From a virus, in the IMG/VR virus record IMGVR_UViG_3300028177_000003, positions 25,530 through 89,529 of that record: a stretch of DNA of 64,000 nucleotides; one strand, written 5' to 3'. The first letter of the stretch is position 1, and every line of letters starts with the position of its first letter. Made by a program: the position numbers and the translations under genes. Below, one piece after another: positions 2,845 through 34,600 of this stretch. Under the pieces are notes generated by a model. That model did not search any database, was not told the origin of the DNA, and saw nothing but the letters and a program-made list of their open reading frames with translations.

Positions 2845-2871
2845 TTACGTCGGGAAGCCAGCCAGGGAAGC
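2845..2871 (-). promoter_or_regulatory. P1-type promoter
   Basis: Minus strand reads GCTTCCC, 13 nt, GACGTAA, then GAGAAGCGAAGGAG and the start codon of the gene at 2824. It abuts the stop codon of the Thg1-like gene. Confidence 0.75.
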
Positions 2872-3671
2872 TACTGGGCCACCTGGGGCTCTGCGCCTTC
2901 AAAGACCACGTCAGCTCGGTTCACCACCTGCATGAACGGGGGCATCGGGCAGACCTCGATGCTGGAACGAGTCACCACCAGGTCGGGGTTCCGACGTGCA
3001 TCGTGTCTCTCGGGAAGTCCCTCAAGTTCAGCCGGGGTCAGTGTCCGCTCAACCACGACCCTTCGCAAGAACGAACCACGCTTGAAGAAGGCAGGATAGT
3101 CGTTCCAGTTGACGCCGACTGCGTGCAGCATGTCCTGCATCTCGGAGCCAGTCTTCTTGTGCATCTGCTTGTGCGAGTAGTAGTGGCGGGTCGCCATAGA
3201 GATGGAGTTCTTGGTGGCGTCCAGCTCTCTCCATAGCAATGCGTTGACAGCCTCTTCACGGCTGGGCACTACCCAGGCCCGACTGTCGAAAACAGCCAGC
3301 TTGCCCGCCTTCTCCGGGATCGCCTGGAGGACGGCAGCGTTGAAGAACGCAGTCGCCTGGGAGGCAGTGATACTGACCAGCTTCTGCAGCTTCCCTCCGA
3401 GCCACGGTTCGGAGTTTGGGCCGTGCGGCGCCAGGACCAGAGTGATCTCATCGCTCTGGGTGTACCCGATGCACGCGCCAGTCTCCTTGACCAGGTGGCG
3501 TGTGGTCTCAACCATCAGGTCCGAGAGACGGGAATCGTAGGGACGCTCCAGCCCTCGCGTCCACTTGCTGAAGGTCTTGCCGTCCAGTCGGATGACAACA
3601 GGCAGTCCTGGCAAGGCGGTGCGCCCTGCTTCGGCCCTCTCGTACATCTTCATCCGGTCGCCGAGTTTCAT
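2871..3671 (-). CDS. Thg1-like tRNA(His) guanylyltransferase / 3'-5' polymerase
   Basis: The family adds nucleotides in the 3'-5' direction to tRNA 5' ends, either G-1 on tRNA(His) or during 5'-end repair. The 266-residue length fits. The first catalytic metal site is RLDGKTFSKWTRG (Asp30) and the second is YTQSDEITLVL (Asp74, Glu75). A central basic segment with SMATRHYYSHK follows. The start ATG has GGAGG six bases upstream. With the CCA-adding enzyme at 13984-15471 it gives this phage enzymes for both ends of tRNA. Whether it acts in tRNA(His) maturation or repair of damaged tRNAs cannot be decided here. Confidence 0.9.
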   Translation of the reverse strand: MKLGDRMKMYERAEAGRTALPGLPVVIRLDGKTFSKWTRGLERPYDSRLSDLMVETTRHLVKETGACIGYTQSDEITLVLAPHGPNSEPWLGGKLQKLVSITASQATAFFNAAVLQAIPEKAGKLAVFDSRAWVVPSREEAVNALLWRELDATKNSISMATRHYYSHKQMHKKTGSEMQDMLHAVGVNWNDYPAFFKRGSFLRRVVVERTLTPAELEGLPERHDARRNPDLVVTRSSIEVCPMPPFMQVVNRADVVFEGAEPQVAQ

Positions 3672-13779: not shown

Positions 13780-13987
13780 AATCCTCTCCTCGCAAAAGAC
13801 GCTCGGCCTGGTTCTGGGTTAGGGTCTCCCGGAAAAGCTCCAGAAAGCGCTGGGAGTTCTCCCCCCAGATCTTCAATCCCAAGAAGAAGACAGACCCGTC
13901 CTTCTCGGCTTCCACGAGATACTGCTCCCCGGCCTTGAGTTGACCTATACGTTCTTCTGCAGTGGTGTTCCAGGCGAAAACCTTCAC
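13763..13987 (-). CDS. Hypothetical protein, 74 aa
   Basis: The start overlaps the stop of the CCA-adding enzyme by four bases. The product has an antiparallel-looking strand region (QYLVEAEKDGSVFFLGLKIW) and a C-terminal helix with charged residues. Not recognised. Tight coupling suggests expression with the tRNA enzyme. Confidence 0.65.
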   Translation of the reverse strand: MKVFAWNTTAEERIGQLKAGEQYLVEAEKDGSVFFLGLKIWGENSQRFLELFRETLTQNQAERLLRGEDYEDRS

Positions 13988-15471
13988 GCTTCCCCCACGG
14001 GAAGGACCTGGGCCAGGATCTGGTCCGCGTCCAGGGTATCGTCACTGAACTGAAGCTCAAGGGCTTCGGCCAGGATCTTCCCGAACAGGGGACCCGGCTT
14101 CAGGCCAGCCTTGATCAGGTCTCGGCCCTGGACCTTCGGCTGGACCGCCGAGTTGTCCGCGTCGAACTTCTCGGCCCAGTCGAAGATCCGGCTGGAGGAC
14201 TCGTGCTCCCAGTTGGGCGAACCCGAGGCCAGCGACCGGGAACCGTCGGGCACCGAAGCACACGAGTCACACTGGCACATCCGGCCGATGAGGCGAAGGT
14301 CGCCCCCGGCCAGCTCCATGCCTCGAGCCAGGCGGGCGTATCCGCCCTTGCCTGCGTTTCCGGCACGCAGCGACCAGGGTCGCATGTGCATACCGACGAT
14401 GCCTCGCACCAGGTTGATCAGCTTGGTGTTGTTCGTGAGTCGACGTAGGAACGTCTCCGACGGGTCCATGCCCGCCACGTCGTGCCCGTATGCCGTCCAG
14501 AGCATGTCCTCCGGCTGCTTGCCGTTCTCTTCCGCCAGCTTCTTGACCCGAGGGTCCTGCGCGGCGATCATCTCGGGCGTGATCGTCTTCTCCGGCTTGC
14601 CCATGTCGTGCAGAAACACGCCGAACGCGAAGGCCGTGCGCTGGTGTTCCGGGATCTCATCTCGGATTTCGGCCATGGCGTCGGCGGCCAGGCAGGCGTG
14701 CGTCCAGACGTTTCCCTCGGGGTGCCACTCGGGGTGCTGGTCCGTCTCCCGCAGAGCGTTCAGCTCGGGGAACATCTCGATGAGACCGGAGTCAACCAGG
14801 AAGTGCAGTCCCACCGAGGGACGCTCTGCCTTGAGGAGGAGCTTCTCAAACTCGGGGAGCAGACGCTCATGAGGCTCGAACGTCAGGGCCTCCCGCAGTC
14901 CCCGGATGAGGGTCATCGTCGCGGGGTCCACCGTCTTCGCCTTGCGAGCCAGCAGCTGCATTGCACGGAGAGCCCGCACAGGGTCCTGGGTGAACAGCTC
15001 AGCGTCCGTCGCACGGAGGATGCCCGCAGCGAGGTCAGCTTCACCGCCGAAGGGATCCTCCAGGGCTCCGGTGTCCAGGTTCACGGCCATTGCGTTGAGG
15101 GTGAAGTCCCGACGCCGTGCGGCTTCGGCCACGGTCATCGTGGGGTCCATCGCCGTCTGGAACTCGGGGTGGCTCGCACCGACATGGTTCGACGTACAGG
15201 GGACGTTGACGTCAACGTCGAACCCGTCGACCGTGATCTTGATGATCCCGAAGGACTTCCCGACCGTCTTGGGGTTGAGGTCCGCGAACAGCGTCTCCAG
15301 ACGAGAGTAGCCCAGACCGAAGACCTCGAGGTCCCAGTCCTTCGGCTCCCGACCCTGAATGAGGTCGATGACCGCGCCTCCGACCAGCATGGCCGTTCCG
15401 CCTGCGCCCTTGACGCGGCGAACGAGCTGGCGGACGGGTCCGGGGATGCGATGGATCTCGATGCTGGTCAT
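13984..15471 (-). CDS. cca: tRNA nucleotidyltransferase (CCA-adding enzyme), class II
   Basis: The enzyme adds or repairs the 3'-CCA of tRNA. The head domain shows AMLVGGAVIDLIQGREPKDW with the catalytic DWDLEV, and the RRDFTLNAMAVNLDTG block that follows is the hallmark of the class II family. After the neck and body helices comes an HD-type domain (FGVFLHDMGKPEKT) as in the bacterial long form with phosphohydrolase activity. The length of 495 aa is typical. With the Thg1-like enzyme, the tmRNA and the release factor it belongs to a translation-maintenance set. It reads from a P1 promoter at 15491. Confidence 0.93.
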   Translation of the reverse strand: MTSIEIHRIPGPVRQLVRRVKGAGGTAMLVGGAVIDLIQGREPKDWDLEVFGLGYSRLETLFADLNPKTVGKSFGIIKITVDGFDVDVNVPCTSNHVGASHPEFQTAMDPTMTVAEAARRRDFTLNAMAVNLDTGALEDPFGGEADLAAGILRATDAELFTQDPVRALRAMQLLARKAKTVDPATMTLIRGLREALTFEPHERLLPEFEKLLLKAERPSVGLHFLVDSGLIEMFPELNALRETDQHPEWHPEGNVWTHACLAADAMAEIRDEIPEHQRTAFAFGVFLHDMGKPEKTITPEMIAAQDPRVKKLAEENGKQPEDMLWTAYGHDVAGMDPSETFLRRLTNNTKLINLVRGIVGMHMRPWSLRAGNAGKGGYARLARGMELAGGDLRLIGRMCQCDSCASVPDGSRSLASGSPNWEHESSSRIFDWAEKFDADNSAVQPKVQGRDLIKAGLKPGPLFGKILAEALELQFSDDTLDADQILAQVLPVGEA

Positions 15472-30067: not shown

Positions 30068-30850
30068 CTACCCCGAACGCATCCTCAAGCTGGGGTTGTA
30101 ACTGCTGTCTATGTCCACGTGGCCTCGGTTTGCATCCACTCGCACCCGACACCCGGGAGGATAGAGGGACAGAGCGTCCTCCACCAGGAGCAACAGGATC
30201 CCTTGCTCTTGCCCCACCACGGAGAGGTGAGAGAGGGCTCCTCCTCGAGCGGTGACTACGGCACGAGCTGAAGACGCAGGAATGTAGTAGTCTGCGCTGG
30301 CGTAGGGTATCACCGCAAGCTGGTCCAGTCGTAGTTCTTCGTCGGGCTCGGGGTGCACTACGGTCAGGTAGGGAGTGGCACCGCTCCCAGACAAGACCAG
30401 GGCTTCGAACTCGCACATCTTTTGCTGGACTCTGAACTTCATCCGATTAGCGGCGTGCGCCACTGCCTCGTCCAGGTAGTCTCTGCGCGGGTTCATCCCA
30501 GCCCCGAGCATCCAGTCGGTGTGGAACGGGTTGTCGCGGGAGACTTTCACCCCGGACTTGCTCAAGGGAACCCAGGCGGGGGCCAGATGGAGTGCATGTG
30601 TCTTAGCCAGACACCAGTGGATGAACGGCGCTGAGGGCACCCTGAAGCGATCCCGCTTCTTCCGCCCGCGTATGGGGTGGCGAGAGCAAGTCTCCGTCGT
30701 TTGCTTCAGGGAGAACCTGTGAGACCCGCAGTGGTCACCGCAGACACGGGGGACCCCCAGGTCGAACCACGCCCCGTCGAGCGGCGAAACTCTACTACGA
30801 CCGTCGTCCGGGGCAATGAGAAGGAACTCCTCCCTGCGCGGTCCAGGCAT
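30068..30850 (-). CDS. Protein with PEP-utiliser-type phosphohistidine swivel domain
   Basis: The C-terminal 65 residues (ARAVVTARGGALSHLSVVG, then GCRVRVDANRGHVDI) match the mobile phosphohistidine domain of PEP synthase, PPDK and rifampicin phosphotransferase, including the likely phospho-His in GALSH. The N-terminal 190 residues are Cys/His- and Arg-rich (for example CGDHCGSHRF) and not recognised. No ATP-grasp or PEP-binding partner domain is attached. It could carry phosphoryl groups for a partner, or be a processed part of a phosphotransfer system. ATG 30850 has CCGGAGAG upstream. Confidence 0.7.
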   Translation of the reverse strand: MPGPRREEFLLIAPDDGRSRVSPLDGAWFDLGVPRVCGDHCGSHRFSLKQTTETCSRHPIRGRKKRDRFRVPSAPFIHWCLAKTHALHLAPAWVPLSKSGVKVSRDNPFHTDWMLGAGMNPRRDYLDEAVAHAANRMKFRVQQKMCEFEALVLSGSGATPYLTVVHPEPDEELRLDQLAVIPYASADYYIPASSARAVVTARGGALSHLSVVGQEQGILLLLVEDALSLYPPGCRVRVDANRGHVDIDSSYNPSLRMRSG

Positions 30851-30886
30851 GTCTCTCCGGGTAGCTTCTCGAAGCTTAGAGGGTAA

Positions 30887-31930
30887 TCACCGAGGTCTTA
30901 GCGAGCCCAGATTGAGACCGACCAGGCCCGCCTTGATCTTGCGTGCGCTGGCTCCCAGGAAGCGTAGGTGGGTCTCACGGGTCAGGCGGAAGGGTCCGTC
31001 GGGAGCCTCGACCCAGTTGAGGTTCCGCTTGTTCCAGGAACCTGAATCCCCCACGTGGGTGACCATCCCCTCGGAGTTGAAGCGATACCACTGAGTCTCG
31101 CGGCGGCTCTGCGTCTGGGTGAGCCCGGTGCGGTTGTTCTTCAGGCCGTCCTTGTCCGTGGGCTTGGTCACCTTGAAGTACTCATAGCGAGAGTCCAGGC
31201 CCAGCTCCAGGGGACCTTCCGCGCCCGAGCAGTGGTAGAGGGACGCCATCGCTGCCAGGAGAGCCCAGGAGCCGGTCAGGGTCTCCGGCTCAGGGTTGAC
31301 CCACTCGCCGTCGCAGACATTCGCCTCCGGATCTCCGCCCCACATGTTCCCAGCGGGGCCCTCGATCTTGACCGAGTAGACCCGGACCGTCTCCGCCTTG
31401 GGCCACCAGAAGTACCGGGTGTTCTCGAACACCTTCCCCGAAGTCCCCATGTCCTCCCGTTCCCAGGTCCGTCCTGTGTCAATGCGGGGGAGACCCTCGT
31501 AGGTCATGCCGTTGTCACGCCAGCAGGAGTCGTGGCAGCCATCAGCGACCACGAAGCCAGGGGCATCCGTGCGGACTGCCTTCCCGCTACTCCGGCGCGT
31601 GTCCGGGATGTCCTTGTTGGTCAGGGACGCCGTCGGAACCCAGGGGGCACGAGGCTTGTTCCAGGAAGAGGAGTCGTCCAGCTTCGTGTGCGGCTCGGTT
31701 CCGGGAAGCACGATGCGCCAGCTGACGTAGTTGGAGGATGCACTGTACTGGGCCCAGTACCGGAAGGTATCCGGACACTCCTGGTCCTCGTCGTCCAGGG
31801 GGTCGCGGACGGCCTCCATGTCAAAGGTCAGCCAACGAGTGGCGGAACACGTCCCTCGGGGCATGACCTGCTTGACGGTCTCATCGACGAGACCCTGTAC
31901 GAGGTGGAGGACGAAGTCGGTGCGGGCCAT
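30887..31930 (-). CDS. Hypothetical protein, 347 aa
   Basis: I choose ATG 31930 because it lies at the stop of the gene at 31930-32184 and is followed by a plausible helix (VLHLVQGLVDETVKQV). The chain is rich in Trp, Asp, Pro and Gly with two similar segments (SSSWNKPRAPWV and GSWNKRNLNWVE). No cysteine cluster. Not recognised. Confidence 0.65.
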   Translation of the reverse strand: MARTDFVLHLVQGLVDETVKQVMPRGTCSATRWLTFDMEAVRDPLDDEDQECPDTFRYWAQYSASSNYVSWRIVLPGTEPHTKLDDSSSWNKPRAPWVPTASLTNKDIPDTRRSSGKAVRTDAPGFVVADGCHDSCWRDNGMTYEGLPRIDTGRTWEREDMGTSGKVFENTRYFWWPKAETVRVYSVKIEGPAGNMWGGDPEANVCDGEWVNPEPETLTGSWALLAAMASLYHCSGAEGPLELGLDSRYEYFKVTKPTDKDGLKNNRTGLTQTQSRRETQWYRFNSEGMVTHVGDSGSWNKRNLNWVEAPDGPFRLTRETHLRFLGASARKIKAGLVGLNLGSLRPR

Positions 31931-32184
31931 CAGAGAGTCTCCTGAACGGGGGTCTGGCTGTACTTCTCGGCCAAGTAGGCTTGAAAGCCGCCCTCTGCTA
32001 CGGTGACTCCGTGGCGCTCGGCGATCGCAACCGCGTCGGCGTGGGACAGCTTGTTCCAGTCGGCGAACGCTGTCGTGACCTGCTCCTTGGTCAACCCAGT
32101 CCACATTTGCAGCTTGTCGTAGAACCACTCCCCCTCAAAGAGCTGGGCGTCCTTCCAGACACGGATGAGGTGCTCTGCAGTCAT
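31930..32184 (-). CDS. Small helical protein, 84 aa
   Basis: ATG 32184 starts MTAEHLIRVWKDAQLFEG. The region GLTKEQVTTAFADWNKL with AIAERHGVTVAEGGF is helical and resembles a small winged or DNA-end-binding fold, but no family is recognised. It shares a unit with the SWIM protein. Confidence 0.6.
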   Translation of the reverse strand: MTAEHLIRVWKDAQLFEGEWFYDKLQMWTGLTKEQVTTAFADWNKLSHADAVAIAERHGVTVAEGGFQAYLAEKYSQTPVQETL

Positions 32185-32186
32185 GA

Positions 32187-32540
32187 TCAGGCTCCGTACT
32201 GGTAGACGATGGTGTCGGACCCGCACAGGGGGCACAGGGTCTCGTCGTGGTCGTCCGGGATGTGCACGTGGTGCATCCGGTCGTCCCACCCACAGCGGTC
32301 GTCCGGGCCCTGGTTGTCCGAGATGTCCGCCCGGTAGCAGGCCGCAGCGTGCTTGCAGGTGCCCGTCTTCTTCCAGGGCCAGCACGTGCAGGTGTAGTGG
32401 TACTCCATGACGCGGTCGGGGCTGTAGTTCCGCTCCCAGGTCACCGTGTAGGAGGACTTTCCGTCCGAGGAGGGGAACTCCCGGCTCCACTCTCGGGTCT
32501 GGGAACAGGCGCGGGCGGTGTGGATGGTCAGGTCAGGCAT
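32187..32540 (-). CDS. SWIM zinc-finger protein, 117 aa
   Basis: The motif YTCTCWPWKKTGTCKHAAAC has CxC then CxH, the SWIM zinc signature found in DNA and recombination factors. A second potential pair, CPLCGSD, is at the C-terminus. The ATG at 32540 overlaps the end of the small membrane protein gene. I infer a DNA- or protein-binding adaptor. Confidence 0.8.
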   Translation of the reverse strand: MPDLTIHTARACSQTREWSREFPSSDGKSSYTVTWERNYSPDRVMEYHYTCTCWPWKKTGTCKHAAACYRADISDNQGPDDRCGWDDRMHHVHIPDDHDETLCPLCGSDTIVYQYGA

Positions 32541-32679
32541 CAGTTCCACCCCAGGAGGGCTCGGTTGCCATTGCGACAACGAAACCCAGAGAGAGGATCA
32601 CGGTCATCGCCAGGAGCCAACCCGCACCGGCGGACCAGTCCACGGGGGCACTCATGAGGGTCTCGAGGTTCTGCAGCAT
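32533..32679 (-). CDS. Single-span membrane protein, 48 aa
   Basis: ATG 32679 has GTAGGAGG seven bases upstream. The chain holds one hydrophobic segment (WLLAMTVILSLGFVVAMA). Tight packing and the P1 promoter at 32700 support it. It could be a small membrane-effect protein. Confidence 0.65.
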   Translation of the reverse strand: MLQNLETLMSAPVDWSAGAGWLLAMTVILSLGFVVAMATEPSWGGTDA

Positions 32680-32699
32680 GTGGGCCTCCTACAGCTCAG

Positions 32700-32726
32700 T
32701 TACGTCCCTAAGAACATGAGGGAACC
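32700..32726 (-). promoter_or_regulatory. P1-type promoter
   Basis: Minus strand reads GGTTCCC, 13 nt, GACGTAA, 20 bases before ATG 32679. It drives the SWIM-protein unit away from the tmRNA. Confidence 0.8.
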
Positions 32727-32787
32727 CTCTACGGGGGTAGAAAGCCTATCGCCGAGGTACTCTTGTGTAGTTGGTCTTTCACATTAC

Positions 32788-33153
32788 GGGGTCGAAACGG
32801 TTTCGACAGGGCAGATAAGGTTTAGCAGGCGTGGCAAGGGATGGACCACCTTACGGTTCGGCAAACACAAACGCCAACAACAACAACGCTTTCCGGGCTG
32901 CGGCCTGAGAAAGCCCTGGGACTTCGTGAGCCCAGGTGACTGTTAGCAAGAGAGTGACTCACTCAGCTTCCAGTTGTATTTGACGAGTTCGGCAAGCTCT
33001 CGGGGTAGCACCTGACCGGGAGACGGAGCACACCAGGAGACGCTGCTCCAGGGGAAAGATCCTGGGACACGATGGTTCTGTGAATGGACCAAGGCTACGA
33101 AAGCTGCGACACTACGTTTGTTCTGGACGCGGGTTCGACTCCCGCCGACTCCA
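32788..33153 (+). ncRNA. ssrA: tmRNA (transfer-messenger RNA)
   Basis: The 5' end GGGGTCG pairs with CGACTCC near the 3' end to form the acceptor stem, followed by discriminator A. CCA is not encoded. The 3' part carries a T arm GCGGGTTCGACTCCCGC. The 5' region has the universal GGTCGAAACGG block. The tag frame starts at GCA 32861 and ends at TGA 32906-32908, encoding ANTNANNNNAFRAAA, which ends in AAA instead of the usual ALAA. The RNA would release stalled ribosomes and tag the nascent chain with SmpB, which I do not see in this window. It lies opposite to its neighbours and is followed by a terminator. Confidence 0.95.
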
Positions 33154-33168
33154 ATCTCATTAGCGAAG

Positions 33169-33200
33169 ACAGCCCCCACGGCTACCCCCGTGGGGGCTGT
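33169..33200 (+). terminator. Intrinsic-type terminator after the tmRNA
   Basis: A perfect 13-bp GC-rich stem (ACAGCCCCCACGG with CCGTGGGGGCTGT) and a 6-base loop lie 16 bases after the tmRNA. Only two T residues follow, so it may rely on the stem. Confidence 0.75.
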
Positions 33201-33228
33201 TCGCGTTCCGGAACGGTATCGTAGTGGG

Positions 33229-33414
33229 ATGCTTCTCTTCCTTCTCCTTACAGCCTTCGGCCCTCCTCCCGTTCCACAGTGTGTCCTGCTCTCCTGCGAG
33301 GAAGACACCTGCGTCATCGACACGCCAGAGGGCTACGCGCCGACGTGGCGGAGGCAGGGGTGGAAGGCAGGAGACCGCGTGCACTGCGTGGACGTAGGGA
33401 TCGAGCCCACCTGA
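33229..33414 (+). CDS. Small exported Cys-rich protein, 61 aa
   Basis: The N-terminus MLLFLLLTAFGPPPVPQC looks like a short signal peptide or lipoprotein signal with Cys at position 18. The rest has Cys23, Cys28 and a late Cys, enough for disulphides outside the cytoplasm. The start has weak TAGTGGG upstream. It lies just past the tmRNA terminator and is convergent with the minus-strand frame ending at 33415. It could be an outer-membrane spanin-type or exclusion protein. Family not recognised. Confidence 0.6.
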   Translation: MLLFLLLTAFGPPPVPQCVLLSCEEDTCVIDTPEGYAPTWRRQGWKAGDRVHCVDVGIEPT

Positions 33415-33601
33415 TCAGAGGTGGAAGGGCCTCTTGCCGAAGACCTTCTTGATCTCCTTGGGGCCCAGCGGACCCTTCTCCGTCGGGAGTGCGGGCAATC
33501 CAGGAGTTGTTGTTTCTCTTGACTTCGCCGAGGACCCCGGCGTCCCAGGTGACCTGCTTCCAGCCGTCCGCCCCAGCTGTTCGTGATACCTTGGTGTCCA
33601 T
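33415..33601 (-). CDS. Small protein, probably joined by a +1 frameshift
   Basis: From ATG 33601 frame 1 encodes VSRTAGADGWKQVTWDAG and NNNSWIARTPDG and then becomes Arg/Ser-rich to 33314, overlapping the plus-strand gene by 100 bases. The +1 frame from about 33480 encodes KGPLGPKEIKKVFGKRPFHL and stops at 33415, exactly at the end of the convergent gene. A joined product of about 62 residues is more compact and respects gene spacing. The shift would fall in GGAGAAGGG. I favour the joined reading, but sequencing error cannot be excluded. Confidence 0.5.
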
Positions 33602-33604
33602 CGT

Positions 33605-34600
33605 TCAATCCTCGTATTCCTGCATCGCTTGGATGAGGAGTCCTCTGGCCACAGTATTGAGAGGTTCCGCCGCCTGGCGAATCTCAGATACAGAAATGGG
33701 GAACCGCTTCCGCTTCCGCTCGAAGGTGTGCTCGAAAAAGGGGAGGAAGTTCTGAGCCAAGCTCGTGCCTCCAGCCACCACGAGGGGGATAGCCCGAGGG
33801 AGAGCGAACCGGTCCTTGATGAGAGCGAACTCACGGGCGGTCTGGTCGATGCAGTACTCGATCAGGCTCTTGTAGTACAGCACCAGAGCCTCCTGCTCTC
33901 GACCTTCCGGGTTCAAGAGGTCCAGACCCTGCTCCTTGAGAGAGCACATCCGAGAAGCAGTGGAACCCACGGCCTTCGCGGCACCCTGGTCAATCCAGTC
34001 GCCTCCGCGCCCCACGGAGAAGACCAGACCCTCGATTGCGTTCACGGCGAGGGCCACGTTGCACATTCCAGAGCCGAAGCTGACGGCCAGACCGGAGAAC
34101 TGCTCGGCAGCGGTCTCCGCGTAGATGATGGCCATGGCCTCGTTCGCCGGGGTCGCTGTGTACCCGCACTCCGTCACGATGCGCTCAAAGACTCCACGAT
34201 GGTACACCGTGTCCCGTTCGGAGTCCACGGGTGCTGCCGGGATGGAGAAGTAGCAGTGCTCTCCCTTGACGGCGGGCTTCCCCAACAGGTTCTGTACCAT
34301 GACACCGAGGATCTCCAGAGCGTCCATCTCGCCTGCGGCGATCAAACCCCCGCTCAGAGGACGCCGAGCTTCCCGCCCGAAGACGTTCGCCATCTCGAGA
34401 GCTGCGTCGCCGACGACAATGATGCCCTCCTCCCCGCGATCAATGAAGTTGACCCCAGAGAGCTTGAGCATCCGACGAGCTCCTGCGTCCAGGTCCAGGA
34501 AGGCGTCCCGAACCCGAGCCGTCTCCACCTGCCCGTCCCCCACTCGCTGAGCGCAGACGATGTTCATCGTCCCGATGTCGAGGCCTTTTCCCTTGTTCAT
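33605..34600 (-). CDS. Actin/Hsp70-fold ATPase (ParM/MreB-like)
   Basis: Three nucleotide-binding motifs are present: phosphate 1 LDIGTMNIV near the N-terminus, phosphate 2 AVSFGSGMCNVAL near residue 170, and adenosine LVVAGGTSLAQNF near residue 270. The order and the 331-residue length fit the actin-Hsp70 superfamily, closest in outline to MreB- or ParM-like filaments. Phage actins centre or partition DNA or organise replication. Linked upstream to a coiled-coil protein by an ATGA overlap, which could be the adaptor or binding partner. Confidence 0.82.
   Translation of the reverse strand: MNKGKGLDIGTMNIVCAQRVGDGQVETARVRDAFLDLDAGARRMLKLSGVNFIDRGEEGIIVVGDAALEMANVFGREARRPLSGGLIAAGEMDALEILGVMVQNLLGKPAVKGEHCYFSIPAAPVDSERDTVYHRGVFERIVTECGYTATPANEAMAIIYAETAAEQFSGLAVSFGSGMCNVALAVNAIEGLVFSVGRGGDWIDQGAAKAVGSTASRMCSLKEQGLDLLNPEGREQEALVLYYKSLIEYCIDQTAREFALIKDRFALPRAIPLVVAGGTSLAQNFLPFFEHTFERKRKRFPISVSEIRQAAEPLNTVARGLLIQAMQEYED

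What the first reader, a model, noticed from the sequence alone, without database searches (positions are those of the whole stretch)
32788..33153. Phage tmRNA with an unusual tag ending in AAA
The tmRNA is complete by acceptor stem, T arm and tag frame. The tag ANTNANNNNAFRAAA is Asn-rich and ends AAA in place of the common ALAA that feeds ClpXP. A different end could redirect tagged proteins away from host proteases or change their stability. It is on the opposite strand from its neighbours and has its own terminator.
Basis: partly seen in the sequence, partly recalled or inferred. Interest (0 to 1): 0.66.

Follow-up and report, generated by a model that had tools for sequence, protein, structure and literature searches.

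The report
Ordinary tmRNA gene in jumbo phage
A large bacterial virus carries a complete copy of the bacterial RNA that frees stalled ribosomes; its degradation tag ends in a rare but naturally occurring way, so this is a new example of a known phage accessory gene rather than a new mechanism.

Summary
The tmRNA is real and complete at exactly 32788-33153 (+): ARAGORN finds it, Rfam RF00023 scores 91.7 bits, and 12.8 Mb of random sequence gives no hit. The contig is most likely a jumbo-phage fragment.

Resumption is at GCC 32873, not GCA 32861, so the tag is ANNNNAFRAAA. GCC lies 13 nt after pseudoknot 1 and has the required A at -4.

The AAA end is rare in phages (1 of 80 distinct tags in a T-arm-based viral sample) but not a phage invention: Magnetococcia, some Myxococcota, some Clostridia and dozens of other viral contigs have it. 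Myxococcota also have ANNNNAF... tags. The tag keeps the terminal Ala-Ala that matters most to ClpXP, so redirection away from host proteases is unsupported.

The record encodes no SmpB and syntenic relatives lack the tmRNA, so it looks like an accessory ribosome-rescue gene working with host SmpB, AlaRS and proteases. The exact tag was not found in about 85,000 prokaryote genomes. A mild lead: tmRNA-bearing members of this phage family share AAA-type ends.

The parts
32788..33153 (+). tmRNA (ssrA) gene, one-piece, 366 nt
   Evidence: ARAGORN; Rfam RF00023 91.7 bits, E 2.3e-34; none in 200 random 64-kb sequences
32788..32794 (+). acceptor stem 5' strand GGGGUCG, with G3 paired to U (alanyl-tRNA synthetase identity)
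   Evidence: sequence; pairs in the minimum-energy fold; G3:U identity rule is established knowledge
33129..33145 (+). T arm GCGGG-UUCGACU-CCCGC
   Evidence: fold; Rfam alignment; identical stretches in other viral tmRNAs
33146..33153 (+). acceptor stem 3' strand CGACUCC plus discriminator A; CCA not encoded (next bases ATC)
   Evidence: sequence
32836..32859 (+). pseudoknot 1: AAGG/CCUU (32836-32839 / 32849-32852) and GGACC/GGUUC (32843-32847 / 32855-32859)
   Evidence: read from the sequence; the second helix is replaced by CUCACC/GGUGAG in the closest phage tmRNA
32873..32908 (+). tag reading frame, resume codon GCC to stop TGA: ANNNNAFRAAA
   Evidence: ARAGORN; A at -4, 13 nt after PK1; GCC conserved in L443 and L075
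32888..32914 (+). P5-type hairpin that includes the codons for AFRAAA and the stop
   Evidence: folds
33168..33201 (+). 14-bp hairpin after the tmRNA, terminator-like but without a U-tract
   Evidence: fold about -34 kcal/mol; not called by the terminator scan
33229..33414 (+). small secreted-type protein (61 aa, four conserved Cys) downstream on the same strand; homologue (38%) near the closest phage tmRNA. Association only.
   Evidence: tblastn to L443/L532 only, E 2e-9
13984..15471 (-). CCA-adding tRNA nucleotidyltransferase-like protein; 49% identical homologue near the closest phage tmRNA. Association only.
   Evidence: phrog_2244 E 3.7e-51, Pfam PolyA_pol, L532; functional link to this tmRNA is inference

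Best explanation
A complete, probably functional one-piece tmRNA carried as an accessory translation gene by a jumbo phage. After charging with alanine by host AlaRS and binding host SmpB, it enters ribosomes stalled on broken mRNA. Translation resumes at GCC 32873, adding Ala-ANNNNAFRAAA, and the ribosome is released at the stop. The tagged protein most likely goes to host proteases as usual, because the tag still ends Ala-Ala-COO-. The likely benefit is supplementing host ribosome rescue during infection. The AAA end is one of the naturally occurring tag variants. Shown: gene, structure, frame, absence of SmpB in the record, absence of the tmRNA in a syntenic relative. Inferred: expression, charging, tagging, protease fate, benefit.
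For: Full-length model match and intact acceptor and T arm. Correct spacing and A at -4 for GCC. Replacement of both strands of the second PK1 helix, with the same linker and resume codon, in another phage's tmRNA, L443. AAA-ended tags native in bacteria and present in dozens of other viral contigs. Phage tmRNAs are a known class: 402 of 18,146 phage genomes (PMC9004378) and huge phages (PMC7162821). No SmpB in the own record or in the 27 viral records searched. Conserved flanks without a tmRNA in L009.
Against: No expression data. No promoter match upstream. CCA is not encoded. The record is an 89.5-kb fragment, so the full phage gene set, including any SmpB, is unseen. The Leu-to-Ala change could lower ClpXP affinity, and the host's proteases are unknown.
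Confidence: 0.8

Rival explanations
1. The AAA tag is an adaptation: phage-tagged proteins are degraded more slowly or by another route than host-tagged ones, which spares partial phage proteins or unloads host ClpXP.
For: AAA is rare among viral tags sampled by T-arm (1 of 80 distinct). The two tmRNA-bearing family members found without tag selection, the window and L075 (ANDNGTVITALKAAA), both end [KR]AAA. Full-length baseplate homologues (37-41%) occur in 4 of 23 AAA-tag records against 0 of 50 in the T-arm sample (Fisher p about 0.008), though most AAA records were chosen by tag.
Against: Terminal Ala-Ala is kept. AAA ends are native in bacteria. Only two members were sampled without tag bias, and hosts with AAA tags would explain the same pattern.
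Confidence: 0.12
2. The AAA end reflects the donor or host lineage: the gene was taken from a bacterium whose tags look like this (Myxococcota-like). This is compatible with the best explanation and concerns origin.
For: Native Myxococcota tags ANNNNAFAIAA and ANNNNAFAARMAA share the first seven residues; ANNNNFFAAAAA, ANNNDSFALAAA and ANNNQHFAVAAA share both the Asn-rich start and the AAA end.
Against: The tree leaves the window's tmRNA unplaced, next to L443 with weak support (68/71). DNA searches of 284 Myxococcota and 48 Magnetococcia genomes gave mostly short matches to the T arm and acceptor end.
Confidence: 0.4
3. The end is partly set by RNA structure: the codons for AFRAAA lie in the P5 hairpin, so base-pairing limits which residues can be encoded.
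For: GCUUUC-C-GGGC-UGCG-GCCUG-A-GAAAGC folds as a strong hairpin over the tag end and stop; L443 has a comparable hairpin over its AAA codons.
Against: Tags ending LAA are the rule although P5 is general in tmRNAs; some folded tag regions (L508, L484) pair less there.
Confidence: 0.2
4. A passenger remnant from integration at a host tmRNA gene, without function.
For: Phages often use tmRNA genes as integration sites, and fragments occur in prophages (PMC9004378).
Against: The gene is full length with intact structure and frame, not a 3' fragment, and the surroundings are jumbo-phage genes.
Confidence: 0.07

Closest known systems
One-piece bacterial tmRNA (ssrA), Rfam RF00023
   Same: Acceptor stem with G3:U, T arm, GGUUUCGAC motif, PK1, A at -4, alanine resume codon, tag with stop in the P5 hairpin
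   Different: Carried by a phage; tag ends AAA instead of the common LAA; CCA not encoded; rest of the pseudoknot domain divergent
Phage-encoded tmRNAs (mycobacteriophage Bxz1 and others, Bacillus phage G, Melnitz-type phages, huge phages)
   Same: Complete tmRNA in a phage genome; no SmpB in the phage records searched here
   Different: Different tag; sits alone between protein genes and not in a tRNA cluster; one-piece, unlike the Melnitz type
tmRNA of viral contig IMGVR_UViG_3300023210_000011 (L443/L532), tag ANNNNHFAPVAAAA
   Same: Closest core sequence found, same linker and resume codon, homologous second hairpin; same neighbours in part (small Cys protein, CCA-adding enzyme)
   Different: Encodes CCA; longer tag; its record has no detectable baseplate homologue
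Native Myxococcota tmRNAs (tags ANNNNAFAIAA, ANNNNAFAARMAA, ANNNNFFAAAAA)
   Same: Asn-rich start, some end AAA
   Different: Core sequence not close enough to show descent

Membership tests
tmRNA (RF00023) | Full-length covariance-model match above gathering score | tested here: met
   91.7 bits against 47, model 1-374
tmRNA (RF00023) | tRNA-like domain: 7-bp acceptor stem with G3:U, T arm | tested here: met
   Sequence and fold
tmRNA (RF00023) | Resume codon about 12 nt after PK1 with A at -4, open tag frame, stop | tested here: met
   GCC at 32873, 13-nt linker, A at -4
tmRNA (RF00023) | Pseudoknots PK1-PK4 | tested here: inconclusive
   PK1 supported by paired changes against L443; PK2-PK4 not resolved
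tmRNA (RF00023) | Charged by AlaRS, binds SmpB, tags non-stop proteins | not testable with these tools
   No expression or biochemical data; no SmpB gene in the record
ClpXP-type ssrA degron | Terminal Ala-Ala with free carboxylate | tested here: met
   Tag ends ...AAA-stop
ClpXP-type ssrA degron | Leu at the antepenultimate position (E. coli type) | tested here: not met
   Ala at that position; modest effect expected (PMC7652416)
ClpXP-type ssrA degron | Degradation of a tagged reporter by the host protease | not testable with these tools
   Host unknown

The most novel reading that the evidence does not exclude
tmRNA-bearing members of this jumbo-phage family use tags ending AAA (ANNNNAFRAAA, ANDNGTVITALKAAA, ANDNALAAAA, ANDNVEFTSFAAAA, ANDNAIRAAA) as a shared, selected feature that changes the fate of tagged proteins during infection; in at least one further phage the tmRNA is accompanied by the same small Cys-rich secreted protein and CCA-adding enzyme, as a translation-support set.
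Probability: 0.1. Interest if true: 0.55.

Novelty: new member of a known kind. Interest (0 to 1): 0.24.

Why it matters
It adds a well-supported example of a jumbo phage carrying a ribosome-rescue RNA with a rare tag end, and shows that such ends already exist in bacteria. If the AAA ends prove to be selected in this phage family, the tag would be a simple handle for asking whether phages tune the fate of rescued proteins.

Tried and rejected
Phage SmpB: none in the record nor in 27 viral records. Dependence of the CCA-less tmRNA on the phage CCA-adding enzyme: tempting, because the enzyme is missing from 20 of 21 relatives tested (one weak 37% match), but the phage with the closest tmRNA has both the enzyme and an encoded CCA, so not supported. 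Of 21 viral loci with a relative of the enzyme, 4 have a tmRNA within 10 kb, two of them near-copies; too few to conclude. Donor search by DNA in Magnetococcia and Myxococcota: no donor. Tree: position unresolved. DNA match to named phages: none. Exact tag in viral contigs and genome contigs: none. Weak 354-nt RF00023 matches in G054/G055 (21.6 bits) were not called tmRNA by ARAGORN. The CCA tally at the foot is not usable as a count, because ARAGORN's end points vary; only the sequences read one by one were used.

Full report
Observation. ARAGORN finds one RNA gene in the window, a one-piece tmRNA at 32788-33153 (+) with tag ANNNNAFRAAA. Rfam's tmRNA model matches over its full length with 91.7 bits. 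No tmRNA is predicted in 200 random 64-kb sequences of the same dinucleotide make-up. The fold recovers the 7-bp acceptor stem, the T arm, a long P2 helix and a P5 hairpin (energy z-score -1.97). The acceptor stem carries G3:U, the alanine identity pair (established knowledge). The 3' CCA is not encoded.

Reading frame. Pseudoknot 1 can be read as AAGG/CCUU plus GGACC/GGUUC, ending at 32859. GCA would then follow after 1 nt with U at position -4; GCC 32873 follows after 13 nt with A at -4. In E. coli the resume codon lies 12 nt after PK1 and position -4 (A86) is essential (PMC2481249). The well-formed one-piece tmRNAs listed also have A at -4. A second jumbo-phage tmRNA (L075) also has ACAAAC|GCC. 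The tag is therefore ANNNNAFRAAA.

Where it lies. The window is part of an 89.5-kb virus record. Neighbours include a volactin-like actin homologue, a baseplate wedge protein, a DnaQ-type exonuclease and an RIIA-like protein, a family A DNA polymerase and an NAD-dependent ligase. Relatives found by the volactin-like and baseplate proteins lie in contigs of up to 529 kb, so the record is most likely a jumbo-phage fragment. The tmRNA is on the strand opposite to its long neighbours. None of 28 volactin-bearing relatives has a tmRNA above the Rfam cut-off; among 32 baseplate-bearing relatives one does (G053, 529 kb). L009 shares gene order on both sides of the site, and holds other genes there but no tmRNA. 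The site looks like an accessory-gene slot. Because most records are fragments, absence elsewhere is weak evidence.

The AAA end. In 80 distinct tags of a viral sample picked by an exact T-arm sequence, 55 end LAA and 1 ends AAA (a few of the 80 are poor predictions). A scan for AAA ends found about three dozen further AAA-ended viral tmRNAs. A scan of about 85,000 species' genomes for one-piece tmRNAs whose AAA is preceded by K, R, Q, H, N or S found them in Magnetococcales, Myxococcales, Campylobacterota, Clostridia, Obscuribacter and Glomeribacter. All 13 Magnetococcia tags read end AAA. In Myxococcota, tags such as ANNNNFFAAAAA, ANNNDSFALAAA, ANNNNAFAIAA and ANNNNAFAARMAA resemble the phage tag. 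The exact tag was not found in bacterial genomes or other viral contigs. In E. coli the terminal Ala-Ala and carboxylate matter most to ClpX, and the antepenultimate Leu affects KM modestly (PMC7652416). Nothing here suggests escape from ClpXP.

Family pattern. Five AAA-ended tmRNAs (the window, G053, G409, G414, G416) sit in records with full-length homologues of the window's baseplate protein. In 50 records of the T-arm sample none has a full-length one, though G441 and G458 have partial matches. Three of the five were found through the AAA pattern itself, so only the window and G053 are free of that selection, and the window was itself flagged for its tag. The tree puts L075, L475 and L489 with other AAA-tagged viral tmRNAs (90/85), puts L484 beside Myxococcota (96/94), and leaves the window's tmRNA unplaced. 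Several origins are therefore more likely than one.

Partners. No SmpB gene is detected in the record or in 27 viral records, nearly all chosen for a tmRNA, so host SmpB is probably used. Huge phages with SmpB are reported elsewhere (PMC7162821). The phage with the closest tmRNA, L443/L532, also has a 49% identical CCA-adding enzyme and a homologue of the small Cys-rich protein encoded just downstream of the window's tmRNA. This shared set is unexplained. A need for CCA addition does not explain it, since L443's tmRNA encodes CCA.

Known or new. Phage tmRNAs were counted in 402 of 18,146 phage genomes (PMC9004378) and listed for mycobacteriophages and Bacillus phage G (PMC4131195). This is a new member of that kind with a rare, not unprecedented, tag end.

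Noticed in passing
window 13984-15471 (-): CCA-adding tRNA nucleotidyltransferase-like gene in a record without any tRNA gene; absent from 20 of 21 jumbo-phage relatives tested, one weak match.
   Followed up: partly
window 33229-33414 (+); L532 8908-9090: 61-aa secreted-type protein with four conserved Cys, shared only by the two phages with the closest tmRNAs among the sequences held.
   Followed up: partly
window 2871-3671 (-): tRNAHis guanylyltransferase (Thg1, Pfam E 2.6e-28), a 3'-5' polymerase; a 47% homologue lies in L543, which also has a CCA-enzyme relative.
   Followed up: no
window 33605-34600 (-): Volactin-family actin homologue (PF25216, E 1.8e-74), conserved at 57-79% in 28 viral contigs, several over 200 kb.
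   Followed up: partly
window 30068-30850 (-): PEP-utilising mobile domain protein (PF00391) in a phage, syntenic in L009.
   Followed up: no
L009 10990-13286 against window 30850-33605: Between two conserved blocks the relatives carry different genes, among them an HD/RelA-like protein in L009 (by eye): an accessory-gene slot.
   Followed up: partly
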